DNA from: a bacterium
Lineage (GTDB): Bacteria > Bdellovibrionota_C > UBA2361 > SZUA-149 > JAGRAN01
Direction: 5' to 3'
Assembly: GCA_030431555.1 (NCBI GenBank)
Contig: JAUIIP010000006.1
Span: 1 to 35,020, forward strand
Length of the DNA: 35,020 bases
The notes beneath the pieces were generated by a model. It was not told where the DNA came from. It saw nothing but the letters and a program-made list of their open reading frames with translations, and did no database searches. How positions within the stretch are numbered: the stretch's first letter is position 1; each line of letters starts with the position of its first letter. Position numbers and translations under genes: made by a program. Positions 24,646-35,020 of the stretch are shown here, one piece after another.

Positions 24646-25821
24646 ATGTCGGCAGCTAAACCTTCGTACTGGCCAGAGCGCGTTTTTGTAACGCAGGATG
24701 CGCTTGAAGACGCGCTTAGCGAGCGCGTGTTGTCGCGCTTGGGAGATGTCGAAGTAAAGGTTCTGGACTCACGGGCTGACCCGGTGACTGAGACGAAGTT
24801 TGGTTCGGCATTAGAAGGCGACGCTGCACGCTTCGATTTGGGTAAGCGAACCTTGCTGCTGACTCGCCACGAAGGCGGCTGGATGGAGCGCTGTCCGGCA
24901 GGAGGGAGCGGCAATTTGGTTTGCTGCAACCTTTGGACTGTTAATCCCGGCGAAGGCTGCCCACTAGATTGCTCGTATTGTTACCTTCAGTCCTACTTAA
25001 AGCGAAACCCCAGCTTGAAGTTGTTTACCAATGTCTCGGATATGCTGACCGCGATTGAGCGCGGCGTCAGCGCTGAGCCGAGCAGGCTGTTTCGCATCGG
25101 AACCGGTGAAACAATAGACAGCTTGGTTTGGGATCCGCTGACAGACTTGTCGAGTGAATTAGTGCCGCTTTTTGGGCGATTGCCGAACGCCTTGCTTGAG
25201 CTTAAAACCAAGACGGCGCTGGTAGACCAGTTGGTCGATCTGCGCCACGAGCACAAAGGCCGAACAGTAGTATCCTGGTCGCTCAATGCTAGGGCTGTAA
25301 CCGAGCGCGAAGAGCTCTGGACTGCTCCGCTGGCTCAGCGAATTGCTGCTGCTGCGCGCTGCGTGGAAGCCGGCTACCGTGTAGGATTTCACTTCGATCC
25401 ACTGATAGATTTCTCGGGATGGCAGGAAGCCTATTCAGCGGTGGTGGACCAGATTTTTGAGGCAGTTCCTGCATCAAGCATTGCTTGGATCAGTCTGGGG
25501 ACTCTCAGGTATAAGCGTGAGATGCAGCAAGTTATGCGCGAGCGTTTTCCCGAGAGCCAGGTCTCGCTGGGCGAGCAGCAGCTGGGGACAGACAATAAAA
25601 TGCGCTACTGTCAGCCGATGCGGCTGAGGCTGCTTAGGTTTATGTGGGACCGTTTGAAGAAGGAATCGCGCGACTTGCCCGTCTATATGTGCATGGAAGG
25701 TTCTTCCTCTTGGCGGGCAGTTAGTGGAACTGCGAGCAGCGAGGACGGTTCGCTGGTAGAAATTATTTCGCGCAAAGGGCGGCTTGAAGACCAGGCCGCC
25801 GAAGGAGTTTTCCTGCAGTGA
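24646..25821 (+). CDS. Spore photoproduct lyase-like radical SAM protein
   Basis: Radical SAM enzyme of the SplB-like branch, 391 residues. The [4Fe-4S] motif is CPLDCSYC (Cys105, Cys109, Cys112) followed by YLQSYL, very like SPL. The strand RIGTGETIDSLVWDPLTDLS and the C-terminal VYMCMEGSSSW stretch also match this family. True SPL repairs the 5-thyminyl-5,6-dihydrothymine lesion in spores; homologues occur in bacteria that form no spores and have unclear substrates. I chose ATG 24646 because the protein then begins MSAAKPSYWPERVF, as family members do; GTG 24628 would overlap the previous gene. Its stop overlaps the secA start by 4 bases. Confidence 0.85.
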   Translation: MSAAKPSYWPERVFVTQDALEDALSERVLSRLGDVEVKVLDSRADPVTETKFGSALEGDAARFDLGKRTLLLTRHEGGWMERCPAGGSGNLVCCNLWTVNPGEGCPLDCSYCYLQSYLKRNPSLKLFTNVSDMLTAIERGVSAEPSRLFRIGTGETIDSLVWDPLTDLSSELVPLFGRLPNALLELKTKTALVDQLVDLRHEHKGRTVVSWSLNARAVTEREELWTAPLAQRIAAAARCVEAGYRVGFHFDPLIDFSGWQEAYSAVVDQIFEAVPASSIAWISLGTLRYKREMQQVMRERFPESQVSLGEQQLGTDNKMRYCQPMRLRLLRFMWDRLKKESRDLPVYMCMEGSSSWRAVSGTASSEDGSLVEIISRKGRLEDQAAEGVFLQ

Positions 25822-28595
25822 AGATGATCATCAACAAAATTTTCGGGTCGGCCAACGAACGCGAGCTTAAACGCTTATGGCCGAAGGTTGAGCAAATTAA
25901 CAGCTTGGAGCCCGAATACGTCCGCATGAGTGACGTGCAGCTTCGCGAGCAAACTGACAAGTTTCGCCGTCGGCTCGAGGACGGCGAAACGACGGACGAT
26001 ATTCTGCCCGAAGCGTTTGCAGTGGTGCGAGAGGCCGGTAAGCGCACGCTCGGCATGCGCCACTTCGACGTTCAGCTAGTCGGCGGGATGGTGCTGCACG
26101 AAGGGCGCATCGCAGAGATGAAAACCGGTGAAGGTAAGACGCTTTGTGCGACACTGCCGGTATATCTGAATGCGATTAGCGGCAAAGGTGTGCATGTCGT
26201 TACCGTAAACGACTACCTGGCTCGCCGCGATGCTGAGTGGATGTCTGCGATCTATGCTTTTCTCGGCCTGACGACAGGTGTCGTGGTTCAGGGGATGGAG
26301 CCGCCGGAGGTCTACGAGGCGTACCGCGCTGACATTACCTACGGTCAGAACAACCAGTTCGGCTTCGACTATCTGCGGGACAATCTCAAGATGGATGCGA
26401 GCGAGATGGTTCAGCGCGGACACAATTTCGCAATTGTCGACGAAGTTGACTCGATTTTAATCGACGAGGCGCGAACTCCGCTGATTATTTCCGGACCGAG
26501 CGACAAGCCGACCGAACTTTACAACACCGCAAATGACCTCGTTAAACACCTAAGCCCTAAGGAAAGCGAGGAAGAAGATGCCCCGGGTGATTACAGCGTT
26601 GAGCTTAAAAGCAAGCAGGTATCGCTAAGCGACCAAGGGGTTAAGCGCGTAGAGCAGCTGCTTGGTATCGACAACCTATACGACCCGCAGCATATTGACC
26701 TGGTGCACCATATCCAGCAGGCGCTTAAAGCCAACGTCACGATGAAGCGCGATGTGGATTATCTCGTTCGAAACGGCGAAGTGATGATCGTCGATGAATT
26801 TACTGGACGGGTGATGCACGGACGGCGCTGGTCCGACGGACTGCACCAAGCCGTAGAAGCTAAGGAAGGTGTCGAGGTTCAGCGTGAAAGCCAAACTTAC
26901 GCCTCTATCACCTTTCAAAACTACTTCCGGATGTACGACAAGCTTGCCGGTATGACCGGTACTGCTGATACGGAAGCCGTAGAATTCAAGAAAATCTACA
27001 ACCTCGACGTCGTGGTCATTCCGACCAACGAGCCGATGGTTCGCCGTGACAACCCGGATGTTGTCTTCGTCAGTGAGCGCGCCAAATACGAAGCGGTCTG
27101 CGAAGAAATTGCTGAAGTTCACAAAGCCGGCCAACCGGTGCTTGTCGGAACTGCAAGCATCGCCAAGTCGGAACTGTGCAGTATGCTGCTAAGAAAGCGC
27201 GGCATCCCGCATCACGTCCTCAACGCGAAACATAACGAACAGGAAGCTTATATCGTCGCGCAAGCCGGACGACTAGGCGCGGTAACAATCTCGACCAACA
27301 TGGCGGGCCGCGGAACTGATATTATTCTCGGCGGTAACCCGGTGTTTCTTGCCGAGGAAGAAGTCGGCACGCGCGACCCGGATGACCCGGAGTTCCAAGA
27401 GGCTCTTAAGCGCTACGAAAAAATCTGTGCTGAAGAGAAACAAAAAGTCCTCGAAGCCGGCGGTCTATTCGTATTAGGCACTGAGCGCCACGAGAGCCGG
27501 CGTATTGACAATCAGCTGCGCGGTCGCTCCGGTCGTCAAGGCGACCCGGGAGCTTCACGTTTCTACGTCTCCTTGGAAGACGATTTGATGAAGCGCTTCG
27601 GCGGAGAGCGGATGCAGGCAATTATGGCTCGTGTCGGCGTGCAGGAAGACGAGGCTATCGAAGGCACTTTGGTGGCTCGCGCTATCGAAAATGCGCAGAA
27701 GAAGGTCGAAGGCTATCACTTCGACATTCGTAAGCACCTGCTTGAATACGACGACGTGATGAACAAGCAGCGTGAAGTGATCTATGCGCTGCGCTCAAAA
27801 ATCCTGCGTTCCGAAGCCATTGAAGAAACGCTTCAAGAAATTATCCCTGAGCTAATCGAAGAATTGATTCTTGTTCGCGCTAACGAGAAAGAACCGCCGC
27901 ACAACTGGGATCTCAAAGGGATGTTTACCGAGTTTCACCGTATTTTCGGTCTGAAGCTCGACGACGAACAGGAATTTCTCGATCGCCAGGAAAGTGCGAA
28001 CAAGGAAATGGCGCAGGACATCTTCGAAAGCATGTCGAAGAAGGCCTCAGCGGAGCTGGAAAACCGTAAGCAGATCATCGGTGAACAGCGGCTGCTCGAC
28101 GGCGTGCGCTGGTTGATGCTCAAAGCGATTAACCAGTACTGGATGGAACACCTCGCGGCGATGGATCACCTCAAGGAAGGTATCGGTCTTCGCGGATACG
28201 GACAGCGCAATCCGCTGCATGAGTATCAGCGTGAAGCGTTCTTCCTGTTTTCGGCGATGCTCTCAAGCATCAATCACTACGTAGTCAGCCAGGTCTTCCT
28301 GTCGCGGCCACTGTCGGACGAAGAGGTGCGCGAGCTCGAAGAGAAGCTGCGCGAAGAGCAGCGCAAGCAGGAAAAGGCTGCGGAAGCGACTCACGAAGAC
28401 GTCATGGAAGGCGGCAACAAGGAAGAAGGCAAAGGCGATTCAGGCGGGTTAAATCGGCGACAGCGCAGACGCCAGGCTGCCCGCAACAAGGAAGACTATT
28501 TGCCTACTAACCCCGCGGGTGCTCAACCACCGTCTAAATCAAAATCTCGAAAGAAGAACAAAGCCGCACGCAGAGCGCGTAAGAATCGGCGGTAG
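25818..28595 (+). CDS. secA: Preprotein translocase ATPase SecA, without C-terminal zinc motif
   Basis: Motor that pushes unfolded preproteins through SecYEG at the inner membrane. Nucleotide-binding domain 1 shows Walker A in AEMKTGEGKTL (residues ~100-107) and VDEVDSILIDEARTPLIISG; domain 2 has NMAGRGTDIILGG and GRSGRQGDPGASRFY. The preprotein-crosslinking and helical scaffold regions (NQYWMEHLAAMDHLKEGIGLRGY) are intact. Length is 925 residues. SecA normally ends in a CxC..CH/CC zinc-binding motif that contacts SecB and lipids; here the last ~45 residues carry no Cys and are strongly basic (RRQRRRQAARNK and KSRKKNKAARRARKNRR). GTG 25818 overlaps the previous gene by 4 bases; ATG 25824 is an alternative. 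Confidence 0.97.
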   Translation: MKMIINKIFGSANERELKRLWPKVEQINSLEPEYVRMSDVQLREQTDKFRRRLEDGETTDDILPEAFAVVREAGKRTLGMRHFDVQLVGGMVLHEGRIAEMKTGEGKTLCATLPVYLNAISGKGVHVVTVNDYLARRDAEWMSAIYAFLGLTTGVVVQGMEPPEVYEAYRADITYGQNNQFGFDYLRDNLKMDASEMVQRGHNFAIVDEVDSILIDEARTPLIISGPSDKPTELYNTANDLVKHLSPKESEEEDAPGDYSVELKSKQVSLSDQGVKRVEQLLGIDNLYDPQHIDLVHHIQQALKANVTMKRDVDYLVRNGEVMIVDEFTGRVMHGRRWSDGLHQAVEAKEGVEVQRESQTYASITFQNYFRMYDKLAGMTGTADTEAVEFKKIYNLDVVVIPTNEPMVRRDNPDVVFVSERAKYEAVCEEIAEVHKAGQPVLVGTASIAKSELCSMLLRKRGIPHHVLNAKHNEQEAYIVAQAGRLGAVTISTNMAGRGTDIILGGNPVFLAEEEVGTRDPDDPEFQEALKRYEKICAEEKQKVLEAGGLFVLGTERHESRRIDNQLRGRSGRQGDPGASRFYVSLEDDLMKRFGGERMQAIMARVGVQEDEAIEGTLVARAIENAQKKVEGYHFDIRKHLLEYDDVMNKQREVIYALRSKILRSEAIEETLQEIIPELIEELILVRANEKEPPHNWDLKGMFTEFHRIFGLKLDDEQEFLDRQESANKEMAQDIFESMSKKASAELENRKQIIGEQRLLDGVRWLMLKAINQYWMEHLAAMDHLKEGIGLRGYGQRNPLHEYQREAFFLFSAMLSSINHYVVSQVFLSRPLSDEEVRELEEKLREEQRKQEKAAEATHEDVMEGGNKEEGKGDSGGLNRRQRRRQAARNKEDYLPTNPAGAQPPSKSKSRKKNKAARRARKNRR

Positions 28596-29419: not shown

Positions 29420-29632
29420 GGCGGCTGTATGGTGGAAGCAAAGCTCTGGCGTCCGGGGCCCGCGCCAATGCACGGCTGCAGAACTTCGCTTGCAGCGCGG
29501 CCGCGATAATCCTGCCGAGCCTAGCAGCCAAGCAAGCGAATTTCCTTCACCGCGCCCACTCCCCCGCACCACCCAAAGCGCTAAGTTTTTCAGCCCCTGC
29601 CGCCAGAGCTTTGCTTCCACCATACAGCCGCC
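29420..29632. repeat. 213-bp element with perfect 32-bp terminal inverted repeats
   Basis: The arm at 29420-29451 (begins GGCGGCTGTATGG, ends GCTCTGGCG) is the exact reverse complement of 29601-29632. The 149-bp centre holds further symmetry: TTCGCTTGC at 29485-29493 pairs with GCAAGCGAA at 29532-29540; GCTGC at 29475-29479 pairs with GCAGC at 29492-29496 as a competing hairpin; and CGCGGCCGCG at 29496-29505 is itself palindromic. A 6-base direct repeat GGGCTT is found just outside each end (29409-29414 and 29636-29641), at unequal distance, so it is only a weak target duplication candidate. There is no credible gene inside. It could be a MITE-like non-autonomous element or a large transcript-end structure. 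Confidence 0.75.
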
Positions 29633-29798: not shown

Positions 29799-32700
29799 AT
29801 GAAAAAGCTGCTATTAGCTTCCCTCCTATCCCTTCTTTTGCCCTTAAGTGTTCTTGCTGACCCGCCTGAGGTGGTGTTTCAAGCGGGTGCGAAATTTAAC
29901 GGGTCTTACGCAGAGCCGTTCGACTTTTTCTTTAGCGGCGACAGTTGGAATCAAAGCGACAGTGGAACTGCCAACGAGATATCGCGCACTAACGATTCTT
30001 CCGGCTCTGTAAGCGGCAATACAATCTCTTTTAACTCCGAAGTGACAATGAGTGGCGATCCGACTTCGGACTATACTGCCACGGCAACCACCGAAACCTT
30101 GGTTAATATTTGGGTCAGGGGTGGCGCAAACGTTTCCGTTTCGGCAAATGGCAGCGGCTCAGGGGAATGGAATTTCCCTGCCACTGGAAATGCTGATCTC
30201 CGTTACGGGACGTACACTCCGTGGAGCGGTGGTGATTTTCAACTGGATAATCAAACCGGAACAGGTAGCGACGGAGGCAGCGACTCTGACAGTGAAGACT
30301 ACGACGGTGATTGCTCTCCGAGTGGAACAACGTTCGACGCTTGGCCAGGAGTAGTGTACCGCCCTCTTTGGGGCGGGGCATGGACCGTTACGACCTATTT
30401 AGATCTTTACGGTATCGAGCAAAAAAGCGGCGAGACTAGCGGCAGCACGACTCTATCTGTCACTCTCGGCGCAGATGACCCTAACGCCATCATCGATGGA
30501 CCATACGTATCAGCAAGTCCAACTACAAACCCCGACCTAGGCGACACAGTTGTCGTTTACAACGATTCCTACGACCCAGATGAAACCGGCGTTGATGATG
30601 GAATCTGCACAGCACTCTGGACAATAACCGCCCCCGACGGCACGCAGACTCAATCAGGCACTTTGTCCGGCACTAGCTTTACAGCCTCTATGCCTGGCCC
30701 GTGGAAAGTAAAGCTCGAAGTTACAGACAACGAAGGAAATACCGACGAAGACGAGATTGAAGTACCAATTAACACCCCTCGCTATGCAATGCCGGGAAGT
30801 GGGCCAGGAAACGAGAAAACGGAGCAAGTGTCTTGCGAGGCAACGGGAGCCGACGAGTCGGCCACGCCAAAACGAGCCGTTGCTAAAGTAACAGTTGGAA
30901 GCGGCGGGGGAAACGCTAGGTCGACGTATGACGATCCCGTGCGCACTAGGGGTTATCCACTAAGAAACAGAGTTCACATCAACACCCAGCAGCGTATCCC
31001 CGGTCGCACAACCCCGATGGGCAACGCAGACTTCTCCTATAACCTCGAAGTGGTTGAGGCTGACCTCGGAGGCGGCACTCATTTTTATGTAGTAGACGGC
31101 GACGGCACGGTTCTCGATTTCGGCTCTACCGGAGGCTCGCCGACTGCTGAGGCGGGAGTTTACTCGACACTTAGCACGGTCGGAGGCGGAGGCTACGAGC
31201 TTGCCGGCGCAGGACCGATCGAATCTGTCTATATGGCAGGCAACTTCGAGTACGAATTTAACTCGGACGGCAAACTTACAACAATAACCGACCCGGCTGG
31301 GAACGTTCAAAATCTAAGCTACAATGGCAACGACGATCTGGTGGCGGTAACAGACGCCAGCACTGGCCGCGCCATTACTTTTGAGTACGACACCCCGGGT
31401 TCGATTGCGCGGGTGGTTGAAAACGGCGGAGAGGCAGAAACCCACCTGACATACTCAAGCGGCAAGCTCACTCAGATTCTGCTGAAAGACGACAGCGCCA
31501 ACGTAATCCGTAGAGTCGACTACACCTACAACGCAAATGGCCTGCTTGAGTCCGTTAAGCGTGACAACGATAACGACACTTTAGTTGAGCTCGATTATGT
31601 TTACGGCGGCAACGGAATTTATCTGGCGAACTTCACCCACGGAACCGGTGGAAGCGGATTTGATTACTTCGCAGTGCCCGGAGGCGGGGCGCAGCACCGA
31701 GTTGTAAAAACCAACGGCAAAGGCGGCACGGAAATTTACGAGTATGACTCCAATTTCAATCTCGTAAAGACAATCCTTCCGACTCACAACGGAGGTTCAT
31801 CGGCGCCGACCTACACCTATACGTACGACGCGAACTTCAACATGCTGACAAGCAGCAATGGTTCGACGACTCATACCTACACCTACACGGGACTAGGTAA
31901 AGTCGCGACATATTCAGACGGCACAGGCACCTGGACCTACGGCTACTCCGGAGTGGATCTAACATCAGTCAGTGACTCTATCGGCACGCTGTACACCCTT
32001 GCCTATACGGACACCAACAATCCGCATCATCCGACGACAATTACCGATGCAGATAGTGATGTCTGGACATACGCCTATAATACTTATGGGCAGCTGACCT
32101 CGATTGCTCCACCTAGCGGAGCAGAAGTCGGCACCACGACAATCACCTATGAAGAAAACTCGATGTCGCCGAACTATGGCTACACCAAGACGATTACAAA
32201 CGGAGCCGGAGACGTAGTAACATTTAACAGCTACACCTCTCTAGGCGACCTGACATCAGTCTCGACCAGTCCTACCGGAGGAGTCACAAATACCTACACC
32301 TTTGAATACGACGCACAGCAGCGCCTGGTAACTGTTACTCATCCGGACAGCAAAACCTACGAGCGAACTTATACAGGCGCAAATCTAACTCAGGAAACCG
32401 ACGAAGCGGGAACTGACTACGACTACGAGTATTGTCCGCATTGCGGTGCGATGACTGAATTCGCCGGTCCGCTTACAAAAACCCTTAACTGGGAAGTAGA
32501 CGACGATTTCGACACTACTGAGTTTAGCGATGCTCGGTCGAAGGTAACGGAGTATCAGTACGGTTACGCCAGAGAGCTTAAGAAAGTTCTCTATCCAGAC
32601 TCGACGTACAAAGACTATGAATACGACAACTACGGCAGACTGGATAAGCTGACCAGCAAGCCGAACAATACTACGAGAAGTGCAAACTTCATCTACAACT

Positions 32701-34523
32701 CAACTGGTAGGCTAGATGAAATCGACTTCTCTTACTATAAGACCGTTGATATCGAGTATACGTATAATTCTGACGGTACCGTTGCTTCAGTAGATCACGA
32801 AGCAGGTACCACCAGCTACACTTATACCGACGACCGGCTAGGTGACACGATTACCTACGACTACAGCGTTCCGGCGCTGACTAACGACCAGATAATCGAG
32901 TACACATACTACCCAGATAACTTGGTTCATACGGTTACCTGGAAGGATGACACAACAACCGTAGCCTCCTGGACGTACACCTACGACGGGGCCGGCAGGG
33001 TCGAAACCATCACCAACTCCTACGGCGAAGTAACAGAGTATGACTACGACGGTGAAGGGAAGCTCACCGACGTGGAATTCGATAACGCCACTTACCTTGA
33101 GTACACCTACAACCAGCAAACCGGCTGGCCGACCGCAATCGAGTACACAAACGGCGGCGGCATCATGGAGCAGTACAGCCTTGTCTACGACGACGGCTAC
33201 AACACGGTAGGAAACCTAACAGACGTTACAGAGTACTCTACTGATACCATGGAGTACGAGTACGACGCCCTGTACAGGCTTACCTCTGAAACTCGCACCG
33301 GCACAGGTTCATACTCACACGACTACGAGTACGACCTGGCAGGTAACCTCACAACCCTAGACAGCTCCTCGTTTGCCACCTACGACGATGCAAACAAGTT
33401 TTCATCGCTCTCGATCGGTACGTACGAATACGACTCCGACGGCAATATGCGCAGATTCGCTGGTTCTGGACTTCCGACTACGTACAACACCTGGGACGTG
33501 CGAGGTAAAATAATTTCAAGCGTTATAAGTGGAGATACTATTGCCTGGGAGTATGATCATCGAGGACTGCGAGTCTCTAGGAGAGGAGATGTCCCGAATA
33601 GGTACTACATCTTTGCTGGAAGCACGCTAATCGGTGAAATCCACGGCACAACTCCAGCCTACGCCTACACCTGGGGGCCTGACGGAGTAGTATCCCAGAG
33701 GGACATCGCCAACACCGAGTCATACTGGTACCAGTTTGGGCCACAAGGAGAGACCAGGGCGCTAGTAGATGATTCGGCAAGTACGGTAGAGACGTACCTA
33801 TATGATGCCTACGGCATCAGACTCTCTGGTTCTCCAACTCTATATAACCCCTTCAAATACGGCGGGAAGTTCGGCTATTACACCGAAGAAACAGCTTTTG
33901 GCAGGATTCTAGCAGGGCAGAGGTGGTATAGTCCCGAGCACAGGAGGTGGATTAGCCGGGATCCGATTCAGTACGCAGGAGGGGATAACCTCTATGCGTA
34001 TGTGATGGGGGATCCGGTTAATTTGGTGGATGTGGATGGGACGCAGCCCACAGTTGTCGCTATAGGTGCTGAGGCTGCTAAGCAGGTAGCCGGTAAACAC
34101 CCTGCTGTGGTTGTTGGCGCAACCGTTGGCTACGCATGCACTCAATTCGAGACATGTGGCATACCTATCGAGAAGGCGAATAGCAATGGCGTGCCTGTTG
34201 TTGTTCAGGCTATCGCGGATGGAGTGGAGAATATCTCCCGTGCTAGCCAAGCTGTTGTCTCGTGGATGTGTGGTGCTGACGACGAAGATGCGGCGAAACA
34301 TGATGAAAATCAGGAAGCCTTAAAGGGGATTGCCAAGGAATACGAAAAGCGTTCTAGGGCCAAACCGATAGATCCAGAAGACGCAGAAACTTTGCAAAGT
34401 TGGGCTGAAGAATACGGTATGCCCGGAAGAAGCACGGATAGACCTGAGAGACACGAACAACGTAAGGTGGGCCAACGCAAGCATATTCATGTTGGTGGAA
34501 AGAAGAAGATATTTGTGAAGTGA
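29799..34523 (+). CDS. Secreted PKD/RHS (YD-repeat) polymorphic toxin-like protein
   Basis: A 1574-residue protein. A Sec signal peptide occupies residues 1 to ~21 (LLLPLSVLADPP). Residues ~22-226 are Ser/Thr/Gly-rich and beta-like, ~227-324 form a PKD-like domain (DPNAIIDGPYVSASP ... WKVKLEVTDNEGNTDED), and from ~475 to ~1370 YD/RHS repeats (EYDxxGxL style) build the hollow RHS shell. A CPHC motif sits at 879-882. The RHS core terminus reads RWYSPEHRRWISRDPIQYAGG ... GDPVNLVDVDG, ending at residue 1414. The final 160 residues differ from the repeats and form the presumed toxin tip. Arginine codons AGG/AGA are frequent, unlike secA, where CGN dominates, consistent with transfer. A probable immunity frame starts 8 bases downstream. 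Confidence 0.9.
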   Translation: MKKLLLASLLSLLLPLSVLADPPEVVFQAGAKFNGSYAEPFDFFFSGDSWNQSDSGTANEISRTNDSSGSVSGNTISFNSEVTMSGDPTSDYTATATTETLVNIWVRGGANVSVSANGSGSGEWNFPATGNADLRYGTYTPWSGGDFQLDNQTGTGSDGGSDSDSEDYDGDCSPSGTTFDAWPGVVYRPLWGGAWTVTTYLDLYGIEQKSGETSGSTTLSVTLGADDPNAIIDGPYVSASPTTNPDLGDTVVVYNDSYDPDETGVDDGICTALWTITAPDGTQTQSGTLSGTSFTASMPGPWKVKLEVTDNEGNTDEDEIEVPINTPRYAMPGSGPGNEKTEQVSCEATGADESATPKRAVAKVTVGSGGGNARSTYDDPVRTRGYPLRNRVHINTQQRIPGRTTPMGNADFSYNLEVVEADLGGGTHFYVVDGDGTVLDFGSTGGSPTAEAGVYSTLSTVGGGGYELAGAGPIESVYMAGNFEYEFNSDGKLTTITDPAGNVQNLSYNGNDDLVAVTDASTGRAITFEYDTPGSIARVVENGGEAETHLTYSSGKLTQILLKDDSANVIRRVDYTYNANGLLESVKRDNDNDTLVELDYVYGGNGIYLANFTHGTGGSGFDYFAVPGGGAQHRVVKTNGKGGTEIYEYDSNFNLVKTILPTHNGGSSAPTYTYTYDANFNMLTSSNGSTTHTYTYTGLGKVATYSDGTGTWTYGYSGVDLTSVSDSIGTLYTLAYTDTNNPHHPTTITDADSDVWTYAYNTYGQLTSIAPPSGAEVGTTTITYEENSMSPNYGYTKTITNGAGDVVTFNSYTSLGDLTSVSTSPTGGVTNTYTFEYDAQQRLVTVTHPDSKTYERTYTGANLTQETDEAGTDYDYEYCPHCGAMTEFAGPLTKTLNWEVDDDFDTTEFSDARSKVTEYQYGYARELKKVLYPDSTYKDYEYDNYGRLDKLTSKPNNTTRSANFIYNSTGRLDEIDFSYYKTVDIEYTYNSDGTVASVDHEAGTTSYTYTDDRLGDTITYDYSVPALTNDQIIEYTYYPDNLVHTVTWKDDTTTVASWTYTYDGAGRVETITNSYGEVTEYDYDGEGKLTDVEFDNATYLEYTYNQQTGWPTAIEYTNGGGIMEQYSLVYDDGYNTVGNLTDVTEYSTDTMEYEYDALYRLTSETRTGTGSYSHDYEYDLAGNLTTLDSSSFATYDDANKFSSLSIGTYEYDSDGNMRRFAGSGLPTTYNTWDVRGKIISSVISGDTIAWEYDHRGLRVSRRGDVPNRYYIFAGSTLIGEIHGTTPAYAYTWGPDGVVSQRDIANTESYWYQFGPQGETRALVDDSASTVETYLYDAYGIRLSGSPTLYNPFKYGGKFGYYTEETAFGRILAGQRWYSPEHRRWISRDPIQYAGGDNLYAYVMGDPVNLVDVDGTQPTVVAIGAEAAKQVAGKHPAVVVGATVGYACTQFETCGIPIEKANSNGVPVVVQAIADGVENISRASQAVVSWMCGADDEDAAKHDENQEALKGIAKEYEKRSRAKPIDPEDAETLQSWAEEYGMPGRSTDRPERHEQRKVGQRKHIHVGGKKKIFVK
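34041..34520 (+). other. Variable C-terminal tip of the RHS protein (presumed toxin domain)
   Basis: These are residues 1415-1574, after the conserved RHS core. First comes a hydrophobic Val/Ala-rich helix region (HPAVVVGATVGYAC) with two Cys, then VPVVVQAIADGVENIS. The last ~80 residues are charged: ALKGIAKEYEKRSRAKPIDP, ETLQSWAEEYGMPGR, and a His/Lys-rich end (RHEQRKVGQRKHIHVGGKKK). Compact tips with a WAEEYG-P-R helix and a closing HIHVG strand are a shape I associate with small RHS/CDI nuclease toxins, but I cannot name the family. The two closely spaced His (HIH) and the earlier RHE are candidate catalytic residues. GC is about 47% in the one block counted. Confidence 0.5.
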
Positions 34524-34530
34524 TACTTAT

Positions 34531-35020
34531 ATGGAAAACCCGTCCGAAGAGAACATTTTGTGCTGTGATATCTTTCCAAAGATCGACGGAGCAAACTACG
34601 TAAAGCTACTAGATTTCTGTTTTGATAAATCAAGTTTGTTCTGCTTCGTGCTTAGAGAAAGACTAGAAGGTTTTACGAGTAATGATGTTAAGGAGCTAAT
34701 AGAGAGGTTGGCCCCTTACCTCGTCATTCGGGAGGTTGTGTGTAAGTGGCCAGGTACGGAAACTTCAGAGCCCCATCCGGTTCATTATTATCGTACGGAA
34801 AAAGCAGCCAAGGAACACTTGCTTGAGTATAGCAGTGCTTTAGGGGTTTGGTTATCTCCGATGCGTCCGGAGGACTTGAGCTTTTTAAGGGTCAACGGCC
34901 GTATCTTTATGGAGTCTGTTACTCATGAGCACTGGTTTTCCATGTTTCCTACTGAAGCGGAGTACCAGGAGCTTCAGAAGCTTAAACTGTCCGAGCTAAT
35001 AGTTCCTTCTGAAGAAGTTT
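34531..35020 (+). CDS. Probable immunity protein for the RHS toxin, incomplete at window end
   Basis: An open frame from ATG 34531, 7 bases after the RHS stop, that stays open through at least 163 codons to the right edge. It begins MENPSEENILCCDIFPKID; further on it reads RLAPYLVIREVVCKW, HYYRTEKAAKEHLLEYS, PEDLSFLRVNGRIFMES and THEHWFSMFP. There is no signal peptide or membrane helix, so it is cytosolic as an immunity protein should be. Acidic and aromatic residues are common. Two 60-base blocks counted (34561-34680) are 35-40% GC, much lower than the housekeeping genes, which is usual for toxin-immunity tails. The family is not recognised; the role is inferred from position alone. Confidence 0.6.
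   Translation, partial: MENPSEENILCCDIFPKIDGANYVKLLDFCFDKSSLFCFVLRERLEGFTSNDVKELIERLAPYLVIREVVCKWPGTETSEPHPVHYYRTEKAAKEHLLEYSSALGVWLSPMRPEDLSFLRVNGRIFMESVTHEHWFSMFPTEAEYQELQKLKLSELIVPSEEV

What the first reader, a model, noticed from the sequence alone, without database searches (positions are those of the whole stretch)
29799..35020. Candidate RHS toxin-immunity pair with Sec signal and PKD domain
A single gene joins a Sec signal peptide, a PKD-like domain, a long YD-repeat shell, an intact RHS core terminus and a 160-residue unrelated tip, followed 7 bases later by a low-GC cytosolic open frame. That is the toxin-plus-immunity architecture, but here export would be by Sec rather than via a type VI VgrG/PAAR partner, none of which is seen in the window. 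The tip is not one I can name, so the effector activity may be new.
Basis: partly seen in the sequence, partly recalled or inferred. Interest (0 to 1): 0.75.

Follow-up and report, generated by a model that had tools for sequence, protein, structure and literature searches.

The report
Sec-exported RHS toxin with immunity gene
This is a bacterial competition toxin of the well-known RHS polymorphic type, followed by the gene that protects its maker; the machine is ordinary, but its small poison tip and its antidote belong to a matched pair of families that Pfam and NCBIfam do not yet model.

Summary
Observation confirmed, with one correction. ORF 29799-34523 (1574 aa) has a Sec-type signal, a weak PKD-like domain, YD repeats, an RHS core (1335-1414) and a variable tip. 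The next frame starts 7 bases later, but the contig ends at 35020, so that frame has no stop.

The toxin-immunity reading holds. (1) The genome carries a second RHS core, 91% DNA-identical to window 33561-34025, that switches at the core end to a known toxin, Ntox37, plus another downstream gene: tip swapping in one genome. (2) The last ~74 residues are the toxin domain proper. It recurs at RHS C-termini in Alphaproteobacteria and Deltaproteobacteria and as a displaced tip in Gemmatimonadota. In 3 of 6 relatives the next gene is homologous to the window's downstream frame (profiles without the window sequence: tip E 5.5e-11, immunity 8.1e-19). (3) Some immunity relatives sit among, or are fused to, other immunity-like genes; a few stand alone. 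(4) T6SS sheath gene VipA is absent from all 15 genomes of the order.

Sec export of RHS toxins is documented (WapA; Zhang 2012), so the architecture is not new. Neither tip nor immunity family has a Pfam or NCBIfam model or a solved relative. The activity is inferred as nuclease/RNase-like, unproven. New member of a known kind.

The parts
29799..29858 (+). Sec-type signal peptide (residues 1-20, MKKLLLASLLSLLLPLSVLA)
   Evidence: sequence and hydropathy; no SignalP run; SecA is encoded in the same contig
30549..30764 (+). PKD-like beta domain (about residues 251-322)
   Evidence: PF22352 E 6.5e-4, PF18911 0.011, PF00801 0.018, all below cut-off but on the same stretch; PDB 2yrl (KIAA1837) E 0.28
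31248..33788 (+). YD/RHS repeat shell
   Evidence: PF05593 E 4.7e-25, TIGR01643 E 1.2e-16; solved Rhs proteins 8h8a, Tse15, Tse5, 7q97 match
33801..34040 (+). RHS-associated core, end of the conserved shell (DPIQYAGGDNLYAYVMGDPVNLVDVDG)
   Evidence: TIGR03696 E 5.6e-16; 91% DNA identity with the second core of the genome over 33561-34025
34041..34298 (+). Spacer between core and toxin (residues 1415-1500), shell-like GC
   Evidence: GC 55.2% against 45.9% in the toxin domain; toxin homology starts after it
34299..34520 (+). C-terminal toxin domain (residues 1501-1574), unmodelled family with signature L..WA.EYG.P.R...E.H..R....HIHVG...I.V
   Evidence: leave-out HMM E 5.5e-11; alignment of seven tips; no credible Pfam or NCBIfam match for any member
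34531..35020 (+). Cognate immunity gene, 163 codons, cut by the contig end (no stop)
   Evidence: leave-out HMM E 8.1e-19; homologues follow homologous tips in L020, L022, L023

Best explanation
An RHS polymorphic toxin with its cognate immunity gene. Steps: (1) the N-terminal signal sends the unfolded protein through SecYEG/SecA to the envelope (inferred from sequence; T6SS sheath shown absent in the order). (2) The YD repeats fold into a shell that encloses the tip, and the core cuts the tip loose (inferred from solved Rhs relatives). (3) The ~74-residue C-terminal domain is the poison. It is swapped as a cassette together with the next gene (shown: a 91%-identical core with an Ntox37 tip in the same genome). 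(4) The downstream protein stays in the cytosol and neutralises that tip (shown by family: homologous genes directly follow homologous tips in three other lineages; binding not tested). (5) The most likely activity is a small nuclease, probably a metal-independent RNase using the conserved K, R and HxH residues (inferred; about 40%).
For: RHS repeats and core. Second module in the same genome: core 91% identical over 466 bp ending at DPVNL, then Ntox37 (PF15535, E 2.5e-11) and a different 211-aa gene overlapping by 4 bases. Tandem core+tip+small-ORF modules in order relative G009. Tip homologues at RHS C-termini in Rhizobium jaguaris, Methylocystis iwaonis, a Deltaproteobacteria MAG and G291, at the end of a 3,602-codon frame in G280, and as a displaced tip in a Gemmatimonadota MAG. 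Downstream homologues directly after the tip in three of these six, a pairing found without using the immunity sequence. Leave-out HMM tests. Immunity homologues beside other immunity-like genes and a DUF4279 gene (L046) or fused to DUF4279 (L028). GC drop starting at the toxin domain. No VipA in 15 genomes; the control rings in E. coli.
Against: No activity was shown. The window tip lacks two features kept by most relatives: the GP before the last strand and the His of HIPV (KIFV here), so this copy may be altered. Tip and immunity models have no significant PDB fold match, so 'nuclease' rests on residue conservation and analogy. Some immunity homologues are not beside RHS genes. No outer-membrane delivery route was identified.
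Confidence: 0.82

Rival explanations
1. The RHS gene is a structural or adhesive surface protein (YD-repeat wall protein); the C-terminal variation is drift and the downstream frame is an unrelated gene.
For: Sec signal, PKD-like domain and no identified injection machine.
Against: A recognised toxin (Ntox37) sits on the near-identical core in the same genome. The tip-plus-next-gene pair recurs in distant bacteria.
Confidence: 0.05
2. The pair is genuine by descent, but this tip is a decayed or altered copy that no longer kills.
For: The window tip lacks the GP and the last His conserved in other members, and carries small insertions in the helix linker and after the conserved R.
Against: The 4.7 kb frame is intact from signal to tip; K, R and HxH, the residues invariant in all seven, are kept; the immunity frame is open.
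Confidence: 0.15
3. The tip is a divergent Ntox30 (PF15532) domain, the 'RxH, THIP' two-histidine RNase toxin of Zhang et al. 2012.
For: R...H and HIP(V) motifs, RHS carriers including spirochaetes.
Against: No Pfam match to PF15532 in any of seven members. Ntox30 is described as all-beta; the tip model is alpha-alpha-beta-beta-beta. The one Ntox30 found in 195 genomes has a different motif layout by eye.
Confidence: 0.08

Closest known systems
WapA / Sec-exported RHS polymorphic toxins (Bacillus subtilis, Streptococcus suis; PMC12704120; Zhang 2012 Table 1 'T2SS/Sec-dependent')
   Same: Signal peptide, YD-repeat shell, RHS core, variable C-terminal toxin, immunity gene directly downstream
   Different: No LysM or other wall-binding domain was hit in the N-terminal region; a PKD-like domain takes that place; the envelope type of the host was not determined
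T6SS Rhs effectors (Tse5, Tse15, RhsA, RhsP)
   Same: RHS shell and core; sequence matches to solved chains
   Different: No T6SS sheath gene in the genome or its order; a Sec-type signal instead of PAAR/VgrG
Ntox37 (PF15535) module of the same genome
   Same: Same RHS core (91% DNA identity), adjacent downstream gene
   Different: Tip and downstream gene unrelated by sequence to the window's
Ntox30 (PF15532)
   Same: R/H and HIP motifs, RHS carriers
   Different: No profile match, different predicted fold

Membership tests
RHS polymorphic toxin | YD/RHS repeats and Rhs_assc_core | tested here: met
   PF05593 E 4.7e-25, TIGR03696 E 5.6e-16
RHS polymorphic toxin | Conserved shell with swappable C-terminal tip | tested here: met
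   Second core in the same genome, 91% identical, Ntox37 tip
RHS polymorphic toxin | Adjacent immunity gene specific to the tip family | tested here: met
   Downstream homologues follow homologous tips in L020, L022, L023; leave-out HMM E 8.1e-19. Binding not tested
RHS polymorphic toxin | Tip is toxic and immunity neutralises it | not testable with these tools
   needs an expression assay
WapA-type Sec-exported RHS toxin | N-terminal Sec signal | tested here: inconclusive
   Classical n-h-c pattern by sequence and hydropathy; no SignalP
WapA-type Sec-exported RHS toxin | Cell-wall anchoring (LysM, sortase) and Gram-positive host | not tested
   no LysM or wall-binding hit in the N-terminal Pfam scan; sortase and host envelope not examined
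T6SS Rhs effector | T6SS present; PAAR/VgrG partner | tested here: not met
   No PF05591 (VipA) in 15 genomes of the order, control rings in E. coli; no PAAR hit in the RHS protein itself
Ntox30 (PF15532) | Profile match | tested here: not met
   No match at E up to 1 for seven members
Ntox37 (PF15535) | Profile match of the window tip | tested here: not met
   Only the second module of the genome matches
BECR-fold RNase toxins | N-terminal helix plus four-stranded meander with catalytic K/R/H | tested here: inconclusive
   AF2 model helix-helix-three strands, pLDDT 73, no PDB match

The most novel reading that the evidence does not exclude
The ~65-75-residue HIHVG...HIPV domain and its WPGT/PEDL/HE immunity partner are an undescribed toxin-immunity family pair, with a fold not in the PDB, spread across several phyla; the window delivers it by a Sec-exported RHS protein in a lineage that lacks T6SS.
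Probability: 0.4. Interest if true: 0.5.

Novelty: new member of a known kind. Interest (0 to 1): 0.36.

Why it matters
It gives a matched, recurrent toxin-immunity pair that Pfam-A and NCBIfam do not model, with a clear signature that lets other genomes be annotated. It also shows RHS tip swapping in a MAG lineage without T6SS, where delivery after Sec export across the rest of the envelope is the open question. The general architecture is established, so the gain is a new effector family, not a new system.

Tried and rejected
A first hit for the tip in G086 (E 0.003) lies in unrelated coding DNA with stops and was rejected. Single-sequence scans with the immunity protein found nothing in genome contigs or plasmids. 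Searches of viral contigs and phages gave no credible relative. A profile search of 395 genomes of the Gemmatimonadota relative's phylum found only the known member. Tip against the Ntox37 tip by profile comparison: no relation. Ntox30 was considered from its 'THIP' motif and not supported. Fold searches in PDB and BFVD gave nothing significant. Weak Pfam hits (DnaB_2, PsaE) were rejected as noise. RNA families and tRNAs in the window: none. Leptospira RHS plasmids also match the tip; their tips were not read.

Full report
CHECK. The frame 29799-34523 (1574 aa) and a following frame from 34531 are there. The window is a complete contig (C319, 35020 bp) of a 3.53 Mb, 354-contig assembly; the downstream frame leaves the contig without a stop. 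RHS repeats and core are confirmed; solved Rhs proteins (8h8a, Tse15, Tse5, 7q97) match the shell. The PKD-like domain is below every curated cut-off but several PKD models agree on the stretch. The signal peptide is judged from sequence and hydropathy only. SecA itself is encoded at 25818-28595 of this contig.

TIP SWAPPING IN THE SAME GENOME. A search of the genome with the whole protein found a second place, C147:12775-13317. Its DNA is 91% identical to window 33561-34025 (466 bp) and the match stops at the end of the core, DPVNL. The protein then carries Ntox37 (PF15535, E 2.5e-11), and a different 211-aa frame overlaps its stop by 4 bases. C147 ends inside the core, so it is open whether this is a full gene or a displaced module. 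A REP-type transposase lies near it. In order relative G009 two core+tip modules lie in tandem, each followed by a small frame. The only other genome held from the genus (G001) has no RHS core.

THE TIP FAMILY. Pfam, NCBIfam and PDB gave nothing for the tip. A permissive tblastn with the last 74 residues gave a weak hit (E 0.05) in a Rhizobium jaguaris plasmid. That hit is the exact C-terminus of an RHS protein, and the next gene, 2 bases on, is homologous to the window's downstream frame (22% identity over 124 residues, pairwise E 2e-5; WPGT, PED and HE kept). From there came Methylocystis iwaonis, a Gemmatimonadota MAG with a displaced tip and a Deltaproteobacteria MAG with an RHS tip, and two more in genomes G291 and G280. 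Residues kept in all seven: K, R, H-x-H-V, I and V. The window copy differs from most in the GP and the last His. Three of the six relatives (Rhizobium, Gemmatimonadota, Deltaproteobacteria) have the homologous immunity gene next; the other three have other small genes.

INDEPENDENT TEST. HMMs built without any window sequence and run on all 453 six-frame segments of the window give the RHS tip at E 5.5e-11 (next 3.2) and the downstream frame at E 8.1e-19 (next 0.15). Shuffled segments score at most 7.0 and 9.4 bits against 37.6 and 62.7. GC drops at the toxin domain (45.9%) and stays low in the immunity gene (44.4%), while the 87-residue spacer (55.2%) looks like the shell.

IMMUNITY FAMILY CONTEXT. 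Homologues occur beside other immunity-like genes: contig L046 holds a Hint-toxin-like fragment (by sequence; no Pfam match), a DUF4279 gene, two copies of a gene resembling the L033 downstream gene, and this immunity gene. In L028 it is fused to DUF4279. This matches the polyimmunity loci and proteins of Zhang et al. 2012 (PMC3482391). Against a strict link, L030 and L031 stand before a transporter-like gene and lack the HE motif, and a Carnobacterium plasmid carries the gene alone.

DELIVERY. No T6SS sheath gene in 15 genomes of the order. Sec-exported RHS toxins are documented: Zhang et al. list RHS repeats under the Sec-dependent route and call that route the most prevalent; WapA of Streptococcus suis was shown to need its signal sequence (PMC12704120). 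The window's architecture is thus known; how the toxin crosses the rest of the envelope is not shown here.

MECHANISM. The tip model (pLDDT 73) is helix-helix-three strands without PDB or viral match; the immunity model (pLDDT 80, pTM 0.79) is a mixed alpha/beta protein, also without a confident match. Only three sequences could be used for these models. Invariant K, R and HxH make a small metal-independent RNase the most likely activity (about 40%), by analogy with the two-histidine RNases of Zhang et al.; metal-dependent nuclease or another nucleotide-directed activity remains possible.

VERDICT. A real, intact RHS toxin with its immunity gene: a new member of a known kind, with a toxin-immunity family pair absent from Pfam-A and NCBIfam.

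Noticed in passing
window 29420-29459 and 29593-29632: Inverted repeat of 40-nt arms (95%) with a 133-nt loop holding a second 13-nt inverted repeat, between the DUF2071 gene and the RHS gene; found only here in the genome.
   Followed up: partly
L018 1335-4140 (contig C147): Beside the Ntox37 module lie further small frames of unknown family (169 aa, 260 aa with a sub-threshold BamE hit, 282 aa), possibly orphan immunity or cargo genes.
   Followed up: partly
L018 4449-5315: REP-associated tyrosine transposase-like gene next to the Ntox37 module (PF01797 E 3.5e-7; NF047646 below cut-off).
   Followed up: no
L018 5730-6365: The frame after the Ntox37 tip looks internally duplicated (two ...YPTK..EAEM-like units); no Pfam or NCBIfam match.
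   Followed up: no
L053 5435-5974 and 11693-12232: Carnobacterium viridans plasmid pDC01-4 carries the immunity homologue alone, twice in what looks like a duplicated plasmid unit.
   Followed up: partly
L030, L031: Distant stand-alone immunity homologues directly before a transporter-like gene in two genomes of the G098 phylum; they lack the HE motif.
   Followed up: no
L046: Array of immunity-like genes beside a Hint-toxin-like fragment, including DUF4279 and two near-identical copies of a 124-aa gene.
   Followed up: partly
window 25818-28595: SecA is encoded about 1.2 kb upstream of the Sec-exported RHS gene; probably coincidence.
   Followed up: no
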